From Alteromonas pelagimontana (GTDB lineage: Bacteria > Pseudomonadota > Gammaproteobacteria > Enterobacterales > Alteromonadaceae), in the NCBI RefSeq assembly GCF_002499975.2, contig NZ_CP052766.1, forward strand, positions 1,612,001 to 1,676,000: DNA of 64,000 bases. The letters are read 5' to 3'. Below, piece after piece: positions 52,627-57,751 of the stretch. A program made the translations under genes and the position numbers. Position 1 is the first letter of the stretch, and every line of letters begins with the position of its first letter. Under the pieces are notes generated by a model. That model saw only the letters and a program-made list of their open reading frames with translations, made no database searches and was not told where the DNA came from.

Positions 52627-53155
<529 letters not shown>

Positions 53156-53183: not shown

Positions 53184-53303
53184 GCAGAATGTTGGATTTC
53201 TAAGCGATATCTCACACCCATTCATAACTTAACTAGGAGAAACTGTACCTTCGACCACTTCCCTATATGAATGGTTAAGGAATACAGTGAAGGTTTGGTA
53301 ACA

Positions 53304-53546
53304 ATGAGAGCGTTTAAAATGCAAGTGTCCGCGAGTGATTACAAAAAGATCCACCTCTTTTTTTCTTCTATGCTTTGCTTTGGAGCATGTGTTGGGATCG
53401 GCGGTTCTATTTATGATCGCTTGTTCAATAACGTATCTTTCTATAACAGTGAAGGGTTTAATACAACATTGCTGTTTATTGTCCTCGGTTTTATCTGGAA
53501 AATGCGTTACGAGCGTAAGCAAGCAGAGCTTTCGCAACAGAAGTAG
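53304..53546 (+). CDS. Small two-helix membrane protein; possible immunity candidate
   Basis: An 80-aa protein with two predicted membrane helices (IHLFFSSMLCFGACVGIGGS and FNTTLLFIVLGFIWKM) and a basic C-terminal tail (YERKQAELSQQK). No family recognised. I placed the start at ATG 53304 (KFMQVSASD follows shortly); an earlier ATG at 53271 lacks a ribosome-binding site. It stands 61 bp upstream of the first start of the disrupted double-glycine peptide gene, on the same strand. Small two-helix membrane proteins are common as bacteriocin immunity proteins, so such a role is possible, but it is inference from position only. Confidence 0.5.
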   Translation: MRAFKMQVSASDYKKIHLFFSSMLCFGACVGIGGSIYDRLFNNVSFYNSEGFNTTLLFIVLGFIWKMRYERKQAELSQQK

Positions 53547-53656
53547 TTTGTCCGTCAGAGCAGTAGTCTTCTTGTTTGAGCTTAGTAAGATTAGGAGGCA
53601 TTTAATTGTGAATGCCCGTGAATCTAACAAGGAAATTATAATGGAAGTATTATCAA

Positions 53657-53660
53657 CTAG
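53657..53660. repeat. IS target duplication, left copy
   Basis: CTAG next to the left end of the IS; the right copy is at 54538-54541. Matching 4-bp direct repeats show a simple transposition event. Confidence 0.7.
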
Positions 53661-54537
53661 AGTCTGTTGATCTTTGCTGTACATATTTTATTCAGCATAC
53701 ATCGGTAACCACATCATAATAAAAGCCAGAGATACCATCGAATGGTAGTTTCTGGCTAGTTTTTCATATCTCGTCGCAATGGCCCGATATTTTTTCACTT
53801 TCAAAAATGCATTTTCAACAAGGTGGCGATATTTGTATAGACACCAGTCCATATGCGCATTACCACGCTTTTTATTCGCCTTTCTCGGGATGTTAGATAC
53901 TGTACCTGTTGCCTCAATGGTCTCTCTCAAACCATCACTGTCATACCCCTTGTCTGCCACAATTATTTCGGCTGCCGGCGAGTTGAACACTAATGACTCG
54001 GCAAAGCGTACGTCATGCGCTTGCCCACCCGATAATTCAAAATAGACAGGTAATCCTCCACTATCCACTGCTAAGTGGATTTTCGTCGAGTTCCCGCCCC
54101 GGCTTTTGCCTATCGCTTCATCATGATCACTCGCAGCACCGCACCCGTGTTGATGTGTTTTAACGATACTGCCATCGAGAAACAGCCATTGGGTATCACT
54201 GTCGCGGCTTAATATTTCAAACATATAGGCCAACACACCCTTTTTCGACCATAAATTGAATCGCCGGAAGATGGCGCTCCAATCACCAAACTCTGAGGGT
54301 AAGTCACGCCATGGAATACCTGTTCTCATACGATAAAGTATTCCTTCAAATGTCATTCTGTGTTCCGGCTTTGAATAGACTCGGCCACTCAAATACATTA
54401 CGCGGGATAGCATCGCCCATTGGGCATCTGTTAACATAGTTCTCGGCATGTTGATTTCGGTATTGTTTGTTTTTGGCGAAATGGATTATACCAGTCTTCA
54501 TGCCGTTTATTTTTTATACCACAAAGATCAACACGCT
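53661..54537 (-). mobile_element. IS5-family insertion sequence (IS427-like), 877 bp
   Basis: Ends AGTCTGTTGATCTTTG (left) and, read inward, AGCGTGTTGATCTTTG (right) are inverted repeats with two mismatches. CTAG duplications flank it. It carries one transposase gene on the minus strand, in a single uninterrupted frame, so it may still be active. The target CTAG is typical of this group. Confidence 0.85.
53688..54449 (-). CDS. IS5-family transposase
   Basis: A 253-aa DDE transposase. N-terminal LTDAQWAMLSRVMYLSGR and MRTGIPWRDLPSEFGDWSAI are typical of the DUF4096-type helix-turn-helix region; the catalytic Asp lies in FLDGSIVKTHQHG, the second in IVADKGYDSD and the Glu in LVENAFLKVKKYRAIATRYE. 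In many IS427-group elements the frame is split in two with a programmed frameshift; here it is a single frame. It belongs to the element at 53661-54537, inserted in a peptide gene. Confidence 0.92.
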   Translation of the reverse strand: MPRTMLTDAQWAMLSRVMYLSGRVYSKPEHRMTFEGILYRMRTGIPWRDLPSEFGDWSAIFRRFNLWSKKGVLAYMFEILSRDSDTQWLFLDGSIVKTHQHGCGAASDHDEAIGKSRGGNSTKIHLAVDSGGLPVYFELSGGQAHDVRFAESLVFNSPAAEIIVADKGYDSDGLRETIEATGTVSNIPRKANKKRGNAHMDWCLYKYRHLVENAFLKVKKYRAIATRYEKLARNYHSMVSLAFIMMWLPMYAE

Positions 54538-54697
54538 CTAGTGAAATACACGCGGTTGCAGGCGGTTTTATGAGCGAATGGTTCACCAGAAAAATGAATT
54601 CTTTTGGCTATGCCGCTGACTATTTCTATAACAATGTAATGATTGGTAACGGCGTTGTTGATGATATGGCGAAAATGGTACGTTGAGTAAAATATCT

Positions 54698-54868
54698 ATG
54701 AAAACTGAATTATCAGCTAATGAAATTATGCAAGTTTCAGGCGGCATGCCTCTATGGTTTGCGGTTGGTGGAACTATCTCTACTTATAATTGGATGCTAG
54801 ACCAAGCTGAAGCATTTGGAAGAGGTTTGGGTTTGGGCTTCTACGATGGTATGCATTCGCGCCGTTAA
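54698..54868 (+). CDS. Double-glycine leader peptide (bacteriocin-like)
   Basis: A 56-aa precursor. The leader MKTELSANEIMQVSGG matches LSxxE[IL]xx[VI]xGG and shares LSxxEIxxVxGG with the disrupted gene before it, which places cleavage after the GG by a C39-peptidase ABC exporter. The 40-aa mature part starts MPLWFAVGG and contains a GRGLGLGFY segment with a GxxxG pair, as in two-peptide (class IIb-like) bacteriocins, and ends in two Arg. Start ATG 54698 was chosen; an in-frame TTG at 54683 overlaps the preceding stop. No exporter gene is seen within the window, so it would depend on one elsewhere. Confidence 0.7.
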   Translation: MKTELSANEIMQVSGGMPLWFAVGGTISTYNWMLDQAEAFGRGLGLGFYDGMHSRR

Positions 54869-55147: not shown

Positions 55148-55531
55148 TCGTTTTAACTCTAGCGCTAACGCTCATAGTATATACCTGTTTGCTTAATCAA
55201 CTTTAGTGCAATGTCAGCGACATTTAGGTATATCTTCATCTGTAGTGGAAAATATTGATAGTTAATCGGGTGGCTTACAGTAAGTGTTCTCCTGATTTCG
55301 CATCAAGCTAAACCGGTTAAATTACTATGAAAAAGGGATTCTCCATCGTTTTCATCTCTACTTATGTTTAATAACAATGGGTTGCTTCAAAAGTGCTAGA
55401 CTACCTCCAGATACTAACAGTAGGATAGGTTGAAATTCGTCATATCTATCCCTAAGCATTTTTCTTGGCCTCTTATGAGTTTAGAAAAGTACAAACGCTA
55501 AAATATCAGGGATTTGCAAAAGAAGTCGCAC

Positions 55532-57751
55532 ATGCTGAGCACAACCGTACAACAAGCACTCGATGAAGTTAACGGAATACTGAGTGGTCATTCATCGCTG
55601 CTGGATGCGTATCAGGAGCTTGAGCCGATCATTCTGCAATTGTTCGATGCCAAACGCATGAGCATTTTTCAGCGGCGCAGTCAGCACCAGGATCTGGTGG
55701 CCCGTTTTAAAACTGGCGCAGAGACCATGGAAATTAAGGTTCCCATCAGTCCTTTATCCATTGCCGGTTATGTAGCGCTGTCTCAAAAGCCTCTGATGAT
55801 TTCAGACCCCTATGACACTCATGAATTGCAGAGTATTCACCCTCGTTTGCGATTTGCAGGTAAATTTGACCGAACTACCGCTTTCAAAACTCAAAACATT
55901 CTATGCGTGCCGGTAATGAACGCAGGGGTATTAATGGGCGTCATACAAATCATCAATAAGCAGGTGGGAGCTTTCAATGATACTGACCTGACCCTGGCTC
56001 GGGATCTAGCTGATATTTTAGGAAATAAATTTCGATATGAGCTGGGAGGTACAAATAACCCTTTTGATTTGTTACTTCATCATGGCATTCTTACCGAAAG
56101 GGTATTAAAAGAGCTTGTAGAAACCAGCCAGGACAATCGCCAGATAATCCAAAGGCTCATGTCTGAGCATCGACTCAGCGAAGCCCAGATCGGCAACTCC
56201 CTTTCTATTCACTTTCAGGTACCTTTTTTACCTTATTTACCCGATAAATATCACCTTTACCAAAGTGACAGCAGGCTGAACCTATCCTACTTAAAGCGTA
56301 ACTTTGTTGCCGTAATAGCAGATGTGCGTGACAAACCCATTGTACTTATGGCTGAGCCCAATAACGCTGCCTTACTAATGGAAATTGAAAGTGCCCTGGG
56401 CATTGATGTGTATGATATTGCTGTAGGTCTTCCCTCTCACATACTGCAGTATCTGGGGGAAGGGGGCGGCAATGGCGCGCCGGGCGAAATGAGCGAAATT
56501 CTCGATGAAATCGGCTTAGCGTCAGAAGATAAAGAAGAGATGCTTGATGAGCTTTCTGATGATGCCCCCGCCGTAGTACGATTGGTGAGCCGTATTTTGC
56601 ATGATGCCAAACGACTCAATGCTTCTGATATTCATATTGATCCTGAAAAGAACGCTCCTACGCGAGTGCGCATGCGAATTGATGGTGTCTGTCGGGACCT
56701 GAACCAGGTGCCAAACTCACATCATAGTGCCGTTATTGCCCGTATAAAAATAATGTCAAATCTGAACATTGCAGAAAAGCGAGTACCGCAAGATGGCAAG
56801 TTGGCATTTCGGATGGGCGGCCAGTTGGTTGAAGTGCGGGTGGCGACCATTCCCACAGTTGCGGGTGAAGGTGTGGTGATGCGTATTCTGGCATCAGGCG
56901 GCGCCATGCCTATTGAAAAGATGAATATTGCTCCGGCCAGCATGACGCGACTTGAACAAATGATAAAAAAACCACATGGCATTTTGTTAGTTGTAGGGCC
57001 TACCGGTTCTGGTAAAACAACCACCCTGCACGCGATATTAGGTTATTTAAACACGCCGGAGAAAAAGATTTGGACCGCCGAAGATCCGGTGGAAATTACC
57101 CAACCAGGTTTACAACAAGTCCAGGTAAGTCCGAAAATAGGATTTACTTTTGCCAATGCGCTGCGCGCCTTCCTACGGGCTGACCCTGACATTATTCTTA
57201 TTGGTGAGATGCGGGATAAAGAAACAGCCCATGCTGGTATTGAAGCATCCCTAACAGGCCACTTGGTCTTGTCTACACTTCATACGAATTCAGCGCCAGA
57301 AACTATTACCCGTTTATTGGACTTAGGATTAGATCCCGTCAACTTTTCCGATGCCTGTGTAGGCATTCTTGCGCAACGCTTGATTCGAACAATATGCGCA
57401 AAATGTAAGGAACCATATGAAGCCTCAGCTGAAGATATTTCTTTCATTGAGCGTCAGTATGGGAAGGAATTCATTGGCGAACTGCAGTTAGATACGCCCG
57501 TTATGCTCTATCGAGGAAAAGGTTGTGATGAGTGCGGCGGAACCGGCTACCGTGGCAGGACCGGGGTACATGAGTTGTTGGGTATGACGCCTGAACTGCG
57601 TTCTTTGGTATATAAGGAAGCCAGTGTTTCCGAAATGAAAAAGCAAGCCATGACTGACGGCATGCGCACGCTTGTGCAAGATGCCATTTATAAAGTCATA
57701 AAAGGAGACACCGATTTGGCACAAGTGCAGATCGTAGGCGGCGGAGATTAA
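55532..57751 (+). CDS. GspE/PilB-type secretion ATPase with N-terminal GAF domain
   Basis: A 739-aa ATPase of the type II secretion/type IV pilus family. Residues about 15-165 form a GAF domain (LEPIILQLFDAKRMSIFQRR ... ILCVPVMNAGVLMGVIQIIN), unusual in front of the T2SSE region. Then an N1/MshEN-like part (LLHHGILTERVLKELVET) and the ATPase domain: Walker A GPTGSGKTT with Lys495, Asp box, Walker B LRADPDIILIGEMRD, His box TGHLVLSTLHTN, and a zinc-type four-Cys motif (CAKC and CDECGGTGYRGRTG). No pilin, GspF or PilC genes lie nearby, so its partner system is elsewhere. GAF may sense a cyclic nucleotide or other small ligand; inferred. Start ATG 55532; TTG 55514 is possible. Confidence 0.88.
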   Translation: MLSTTVQQALDEVNGILSGHSSLLDAYQELEPIILQLFDAKRMSIFQRRSQHQDLVARFKTGAETMEIKVPISPLSIAGYVALSQKPLMISDPYDTHELQSIHPRLRFAGKFDRTTAFKTQNILCVPVMNAGVLMGVIQIINKQVGAFNDTDLTLARDLADILGNKFRYELGGTNNPFDLLLHHGILTERVLKELVETSQDNRQIIQRLMSEHRLSEAQIGNSLSIHFQVPFLPYLPDKYHLYQSDSRLNLSYLKRNFVAVIADVRDKPIVLMAEPNNAALLMEIESALGIDVYDIAVGLPSHILQYLGEGGGNGAPGEMSEILDEIGLASEDKEEMLDELSDDAPAVVRLVSRILHDAKRLNASDIHIDPEKNAPTRVRMRIDGVCRDLNQVPNSHHSAVIARIKIMSNLNIAEKRVPQDGKLAFRMGGQLVEVRVATIPTVAGEGVVMRILASGGAMPIEKMNIAPASMTRLEQMIKKPHGILLVVGPTGSGKTTTLHAILGYLNTPEKKIWTAEDPVEITQPGLQQVQVSPKIGFTFANALRAFLRADPDIILIGEMRDKETAHAGIEASLTGHLVLSTLHTNSAPETITRLLDLGLDPVNFSDACVGILAQRLIRTICAKCKEPYEASAEDISFIERQYGKEFIGELQLDTPVMLYRGKGCDECGGTGYRGRTGVHELLGMTPELRSLVYKEASVSEMKKQAMTDGMRTLVQDAIYKVIKGDTDLAQVQIVGGGD

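What the first reader, a model, noticed from the sequence alone, without database searches (positions are those of the whole stretch)
53608..54868. Two-peptide double-glycine bacteriocin-like locus broken by an IS5-family element
Removing 53661-54541 (the IS plus one CTAG) joins ATGGAAGTATTATCAACTAG with TGAAATACACGC in one frame, giving a 54-codon peptide gene that ends at 54686. Its leader (ending HAVAGG) and that of the intact next gene (ending MQVSGG) both follow LSxxEIxxVxGG, the consensus of double-glycine leaders cut by C39 exporters. The second mature peptide has a GxxxG pair. So a two-peptide system with its first gene split by a recent transposition is seen directly. An antimicrobial activity is inferred.
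Basis: partly seen in the sequence, partly recalled or inferred. Interest (0 to 1): 0.85.

Follow-up and report, generated by a model that had tools for sequence, protein, structure and literature searches.

The report
Two-peptide bacteriocin cassette, one gene split
A marine bacterium carries a small cassette that looks like a two-part peptide antibiotic with a likely self-protection gene; a mobile element has recently split one of the two peptide genes, which related species keep whole.

Summary
Confirmed and extended. An IS5-family element (three identical copies in the genome) splits a small gene (A) with a double-glycine leader; gene B downstream is whole. Relatives support the pair: G045 carries uninterrupted A and B at the same chromosomal site, between rpsJ and a PilB-like gene. 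The genus (Alteromonas) has 14 B loci in 13 of 59 genomes; eight carry A, B and a 64-79 aa hydrophobic protein, the likely immunity protein. The window keeps that gene, upstream of A. In one five-genome group all three genes are under purifying selection. Some B relatives match the lactococcin G-beta model, one above its curated cutoff and on the mature part alone; the window's own B does not. The genome has one C39-peptidase ABC exporter with an HlyD-type adaptor, 1.09 Mb away, so export would be in trans. Best reading: a class IIb-like two-peptide bacteriocin cassette turned by recent transposition into an immune non-producer. Killing, export and immunity are inferred; signalling or autolysis remain possible. 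The rpsJ-adjacent site is a hotspot: 9 of 58 genomes have double-glycine frames there, two of these without an ordinary start codon.

The parts
53319..53546 (+). Candidate immunity gene: 75-aa ORF with two hydrophobic segments (frame open from 53271)
   Evidence: 32% identical over 57 aa to the ORF in the same position in L032; hydropathy peaks 2.07 and 1.76; no Pfam or NCBIfam match
53641..53659 (+). Left piece of gene A (six codons of the leader and part of the next codon)
   Evidence: Sequence; start position as in intact relatives
53660..54538 (-). IS5-family element with imperfect inverted ends, flanked by TA repeats
   Evidence: Ends compared over three genome copies; inverted arms 53656-53698 and 54500-54542
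53688..54449 (-). IS5-family transposase, 253 aa
   Evidence: NF033580 E 2e-77; PF13340 and PF01609
54543..54686 (+). Right piece of gene A: end of leader (EIHAVAGG) and 39-aa mature part
   Evidence: Matches intact A relatives in frame
54698..54868 (+). Gene B: 56-aa double-glycine precursor, 40-aa mature part with FGRGLGLGFYDGMH
   Evidence: 13 of 59 genus genomes have it or a relative at E<1e-3; invariant glycines
52627..52938 (-). rpsJ (ribosomal protein S10), left anchor of the hotspot
   Evidence: 100% identical in L032; found in 58 of 59 genus genomes
55514..57751 (+). PilB-like ATPase with GAF domain, right anchor of the hotspot
   Evidence: PF00437 E 2e-120, GAF; 81% identical in L032

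Best explanation
The locus is a cassette of a class IIb-like two-peptide bacteriocin without its own exporter: a small membrane immunity protein, peptide A and peptide B. In intact relatives both precursors would be recognised by their double-glycine leaders, cleaved and exported by the chromosomal C39-peptidase ABC exporter with its HlyD-type adaptor (encoded far away) and a TolC-type channel. Outside, the two glycine-rich peptides would act together on the inner membrane of close relatives that lack the matching immunity protein; by analogy with lactococcin G and enterocin C the receptor could be BacA/UppP. In this genome a recent insertion of an IS5-family element cuts A within its leader, so no complete A precursor can be made, while B and the immunity-like gene stay whole: an immune non-producer. 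Shown: the genes, the split, whole pairs in relatives, purifying selection, an exporter with its catalytic stretches. Inferred: export, pairing, killing, immunity, receptor.
For: Same-site whole pair in G045. Eight of 14 genus B loci have A, B and the small hydrophobic ORF. 11 of 13 loci read from other genera of the family have a second double-glycine ORF beside B or, in L156, an A-type ORF. pN/pS 0.11 (A), 0.17 (B), 0.34 (neighbour) in one group. L033's B scores 39.6 bits against a cutoff of 37 for NF038034, lactococcin G-beta/enterocin 1071B, and its mature part alone E 2.4e-6. One C39 exporter, best solved relative the bacteriocin transporter 4ry2, E 4.5e-98; C39, ABC and HlyD domains over cutoff; four TolC-type OEP proteins in the genome. 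Three identical IS copies. Interrupted A or A and B with a whole hydrophobic ORF also in L036 and L025.
Against: No activity data. The window's own B does not match the lactococcin G-beta model and A relatives match no alpha-peptide model. The window's A lacks the GxxxG of most relatives. The exporter is unlinked, so cargo is assumed. The immunity-like proteins of different groups are hardly alike (10-27% to the window's), match no Pfam family, and their second hydrophobic segment is weak in L028-L031 and L033 (peaks 0.87-1.32).
Confidence: 0.68

Rival explanations
1. The peptides are secreted signals, biofilm or self-lysis peptides rather than competitor-killing bacteriocins; the small membrane protein is a sensor or a brake on self-lysis.
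For: Double-glycine peptides of the gonococcal nap island drive autolysis and did not kill competitors (PMC11798529, passages); four double-glycine proteins act in cyanobacterial biofilm (PMC4997328, start of abstract). Export features would be the same.
Against: Paired, glycine-rich peptides with a lactococcin G-beta match in some relatives; patchy presence, 13 of 59 genomes; no receptor kinase or regulator conserved beside the pairs was noticed, though this was not searched systematically.
Confidence: 0.2
2. B alone is the active peptide (a one-peptide, microcin-like bacteriocin) and A is an accessory; the window may still produce B.
For: B is whole in the window, L035 and L036 where A is split, absent or interrupted; L154 and L161 show B without a second double-glycine ORF within 700 b.
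Against: A is as strongly conserved as B in the group measured and adjacent in most loci.
Confidence: 0.1
3. The two reading frames are chance ORFs and the leader likeness is coincidence.
For: Short frames; no Pfam family over cutoff for B or the A piece.
Against: Pairs in related genomes, same-site whole copy, pN far below pS, shuffle control.
Confidence: 0.01

Closest known systems
Lactococcin G / enterocin 1071 / enterocin C (class IIb two-peptide bacteriocins)
   Same: Two adjacent double-glycine precursors, a membrane immunity protein, GxxxG; some B relatives match the beta-peptide model NF038034 over its whole length, one above cutoff
   Different: Gram-negative host, exporter unlinked, immunity candidate 64-79 aa, no match of A to the alpha model, no match of the window's own B
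Class IIb bacteriocin, lactobin A/cerein 7B family (TIGR03949), the NCBI label on five of 54 B relatives
   Same: Leader, and in some relatives part of the mature region; three of the 16 B peptides scanned singly with that model as full-length proteins cannot all be counted alike, but two score over its cutoff of 21.5 (30.1 and 24.7 bits)
   Different: The window's B matches only over its leader, 16 bits, below cutoff
Cdz system of Caulobacter crescentus
   Same: Two-protein glycine-rich bacteriocin of a Gram-negative with a small transmembrane immunity protein (PMC5380434, passages)
   Different: CdzC and CdzD are 86 and 84 aa with long glycine zippers and the secretion genes are in the cluster; here 51-61 aa precursors and an unlinked exporter
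Class II microcins of Enterobacterales
   Same: Double-glycine leader (GG or GA), C39 ABC exporter with adaptor, small nearby immunity candidate (PMC9746304, passages)
   Different: Described microcins act as single peptides (recalled); here a conserved pair

Membership tests
Class IIb two-peptide bacteriocin (lactococcin G type) | Two adjacent small precursors with double-glycine leaders | tested here: met
   Window (A split) and whole pairs in relatives
Class IIb two-peptide bacteriocin (lactococcin G type) | Sequence match to the lactococcin G alpha and beta families | tested here: inconclusive
   Beta: 13 of 19 aligned B peptides at E<=1, one over cutoff, not the window's own. Alpha: no match of 9 A rows
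Class IIb two-peptide bacteriocin (lactococcin G type) | GxxxG in both mature peptides | tested here: inconclusive
   Met in B and in all eight intact A relatives aligned; not in the window's A piece
Class IIb two-peptide bacteriocin (lactococcin G type) | Adjacent immunity gene for a membrane protein | tested here: inconclusive
   Small hydrophobic ORF beside the pair; function not testable here
Class IIb two-peptide bacteriocin (lactococcin G type) | Both peptides needed for full killing | not testable with these tools
   Needs peptides and indicator strains
Class II microcin (as in PMC9746304) | C39 ABC exporter with catalytic triad and HlyD-type adaptor in the genome | tested here: met
   L003 6021-9475 (-); TolC-type proteins present
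Class II microcin (as in PMC9746304) | Antibacterial activity of a single exported peptide | not testable with these tools
   No assay; the conserved pair speaks against a single peptide
Cdz-like system | Secretion genes beside the toxin genes | tested here: not met
   The only C39 domain found in the genome lies 1.09 Mb away; no ABC or HlyD-type gene was noticed in the ORFs listed for 44-64 kb

The most novel reading that the evidence does not exclude
A lactococcin-G-like two-peptide bacteriocin family lives in Gram-negative marine Alteromonadaceae and kin as exchangeable A-B-immunity cassettes without their own exporter. They share one chromosomal exporter and sit in hotspots such as the gap upstream of rpsJ. 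They decay in order: peptide A, or both peptides, are lost while the immunity gene stays, so the window, L036 and L025 are steps from killer to immune cheater, the window caught soon after transposition.
Probability: 0.33. Interest if true: 0.72.

Novelty: new variant of a known kind. Interest (0 to 1): 0.52.

Why it matters
Unmodified two-peptide bacteriocins are described mainly from Gram-positive bacteria (recalled; Cdz is one Gram-negative case, PMC5380434). A family-wide set of short paired peptides with a candidate immunity gene and an exporter in trans would give marine ecology a testable interference system, and a natural series (whole, split, eroded) in which keeping immunity after losing the killing peptide can be measured. 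The B peptide of G057 is recorded on 466 contigs with Tara among its sources (P0015), so at least one cassette is widespread.

Tried and rejected
Rejected: the single genome-contig hit for B (Ruegeria, L002) lies inside a frame of 601 aa and is taken as chance. Two B peptides gave no plasmid match. Single-protein searches of 5.8 billion proteins with B or the A piece found only the window's own B and one 38-aa fragment; the search with alignment A4 found 54. The B profile resembles no solved structure at E<=1 except a leader-like stretch of one peptide (E 0.83). No tRNA and no Rfam family in the window. A first leader pattern in my script had wrong spacing and missed the known peptides, corrected. 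Modifying enzymes and regulators near the cassettes were not searched systematically. L182 was fetched and not analysed.

Rows dropped: A1 has 12 of the 14 genus B loci (L025's interrupted copy, and L028's, which I overlooked, are missing); A4 adds 7 rows from 13 other-genus loci (L156 and copies identical or near identical to others left out). A2 holds the window's own right piece, so its E-value is partly by construction; one search is independent. pN/pS used one group only (A and neighbour ORF: L028-L031, L033; B: the same without L028). Hydropathy was computed for 14 proteins and 5, with start codons chosen by me where a longer frame was open (L026, L029, L031, L033, window).

Full report
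Observation. A 253-aa IS5-family transposase (NF033580, E 2e-77) on the minus strand lies in an element with imperfect inverted ends. Three copies, identical over 877 b, occur in the 4,314,189-b single-contig genome, which speaks for recent transposition. Comparing the ends of the three, only TA is repeated on both sides of all of them; the G and C beside it fit the element's own ends (GAG...CTC). Gene A is cut inside its leader: its left piece (ATG 53641) gives six codons, its right piece 54543-54686 gives EIHAVAGG and 39 mature residues. Gene B (54698-54868) is whole and starts 11 b after the end of A.

Relatives. The genus is Alteromonas: P0014, given by NCBI as a hypothetical protein of Alteromonas halophila, has the sequence of the B protein of L034, and its contig length of 883,820 is that of G013:C1. 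B or a relative is found at E<1e-3 in 13 of 59 genomes, the window's own included; the profile search finds 14 B loci in these 13 genomes at E<1e-15. In one of them, G045 (L032), the window's order is kept: S10 100% and L3 93% identical on one side, the PilB-like gene (81%) 5.5 kb beyond B on the other. Between lie a 67-aa ORF, a 59-aa A and a 59-aa B, uninterrupted.

Tally of the 14 loci. Eight have an A-type gene, B and a small hydrophobic ORF of 64-79 aa, taking the start codons I chose (L026, L027, L028, L029, L030, L031, L032, L033). L034 has B, an A-like ORF and a third hydrophobic ORF. L024 has B and an A-like frame without an ordinary start codon. Four are impaired: the window (IS in A), L036 (A frame with internal stops; B and a 64-aa hydrophobic ORF whole), L035 (no A seen in 300 b upstream of B; B and a 64-aa ORF whole), L025 (A and B both with an internal stop; 69-aa ORF whole). 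The A profile search has nine places at E<1e-18, the window's right piece among them, and one in G053 at 8e-16 that sits beside another double-glycine ORF and a 71-aa hydrophobic ORF.

Selection. In the group L028-L031 and L033, pooled pN/pS is 0.11 for A, 0.17 for B (four loci) and 0.34 for the neighbour ORF; several pairs are saturated at synonymous sites. The three frames behave as real genes. The faster change of the neighbour would suit an immunity protein, but that is inference.

Candidate immunity gene. The ORF 53271-53546 (likely start 53319) is 32% identical over 57 aa to the G045 ORF in the same position and has two hydrophobic peaks, 2.07 and 1.76. It comes first in the window, L027 and L032, and last in L026, L028-L031 and L033. 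The second peak is weak in L028-L031 and L033 (0.87-1.32), the proteins of the different groups are hardly alike, and there is no Pfam match over cutoff. Immunity proteins of Gram-positive two-peptide bacteriocins are likewise diverse, with one to four membrane segments in the three mapped (PMC6957408, passages).

What the peptides resemble. Of 19 aligned B peptides, 13 match NF038034 (lactococcin G-beta/enterocin 1071B) and 10 match TIGR03949 at E<=1. L033's B exceeds the NF038034 cutoff (39.6 against 37 bits), and its mature part alone scores 27.6 bits, E 2.4e-6, so this is not the leader only. Against this: the window's own B has just a sub-cutoff leader match to TIGR03949 (E 0.008) and its mature part matches nothing; nine A rows match no alpha-peptide model. 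NCBI names five of the 54 B relatives class IIb bacteriocin, lactobin A/cerein 7B family. Beyond the genus, 15 places at E<2e-5 were found in 395 genomes of the family; 13 came as loci, and 11 of these 13 hold a second double-glycine ORF or, in L156, an A-type ORF. In the order-wide draw 5 of 394 genomes match at 1e-5, four of them in the window's family.

Export. The genome has one C39-peptidase domain, in a 733-aa ABC protein (L003 6021-8222, -; C39, ABC_membrane and ABC_tran over cutoff), beside a 417-aa protein with HlyD domains. Its best solved relative is the bacteriocin transporter 4ry2 (E 4.5e-98), with EAAECGLAC, QHFVVL and HDPALG aligned to that protein's Cys, His and Asp stretches (that these are the catalytic residues is recalled and agrees with the Cys-His-Asp triad of CvaB named in PMC9746304). 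Four TolC-type proteins are present. 58 of 59 genus genomes have a C39 match. Export in trans is the economical reading, not shown. The genome keeps other possible cargo: two further double-glycine ORFs and a 59-aa ORF at about C1:3,949,000 (L173).

Hotspot. I read the region upstream of rpsJ in 58 genomes (56 loci, G045 and the window; L067 and L069 are short contig ends). In 40 of the 56 the PilB-like gene starts within 1.1 kb. Nine of 58 carry double-glycine frames there: the window, G045, L054, L069, L070, L071, L072, L075, L100; in L069 and L071 the leader has no ordinary start codon before it. A strict pattern gives 7 hits in 62.8 kb near rpsJ and 4 in 578 kb elsewhere in the same stretches, one of the 4 being the window's B moved outward by the IS; mononucleotide shuffles of the near regions give 0.005 per set. 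Apart from the window and G045 these peptides are not of the A or B type. L073 has a 65-aa hydrophobic ORF at this place without a double-glycine ORF, alike to the one beside the peptide in L100.

Mechanism. Most likely: leader-guided export through the C39 exporter, joint action of A and B on the membrane of close relatives, self-protection by the small membrane protein. For lactococcin G and enterocin C the receptor is BacA (PMC12765074, abstract and introduction); whether that holds here is unknown. In the window A cannot be made whole, B may be reduced by polarity of the IS (inference), and immunity is probably kept.

Literature. Searches for Alteromonas with double-glycine and bacteriocin (0 papers) and with class IIb bacteriocin (2 papers, single mentions of Alteromonas) gave no description of this system. 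The library holds open-licence papers only. The 2004 survey by Dirix and others of double-glycine peptides in Gram-negatives was seen only as a reference and may list related peptides.

Verdict. Real and well supported, of moderate interest: a variant of two-peptide bacteriocin cassettes in Gram-negative marine bacteria, seen with a recent insertion in one peptide gene. The probability of the bold reading was lowered slightly (0.35 to 0.33) on checking, because two of the nine hotspot frames lack a start codon and the second hydrophobic segment is weak in one group.

Noticed in passing
G000:C1:4208562-4209319 (-), outside the window (L182): The window's genome is the only one of 59 in the genus with a second BacA/UppP-like gene besides the intact one, and that second copy is found in two pieces with a stop codon in each match. 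BacA is the receptor of lactococcin G and enterocin C; any link is speculation.
   Followed up: partly
L173 1422-1991 (-) (G000:C1 about 3,948,900-3,949,500): A second set of two adjacent double-glycine ORFs (both cores begin ILP) and a 59-aa ORF in the window's own genome.
   Followed up: partly
L073 868-1065 and L100 1008-1199: Alike small hydrophobic ORFs upstream of rpsJ, with a double-glycine ORF beside it in L100 and none seen in L073: a possible orphan immunity gene.
   Followed up: partly
L072 750-1208: Three double-glycine ORFs in a row upstream of rpsJ in G017, unlike A and B, followed by a hydrophobic 75-aa ORF.
   Followed up: no
L034 8251-8430 (reverse complement): A 59-aa hydrophobic ORF next to the pair ends in FNAFTDFGAGIGRGVYDAV, much like the end of peptide B itself; possibly a B-like immunity protein.
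   Followed up: no
window 54570-54686: A 38-aa protein equal to the mature part of A from an internal ATG is recorded from another assembly with a 3,376,110-b contig (P0002), so a sister genome shares the region; its state at the IS site is unknown.
   Followed up: partly
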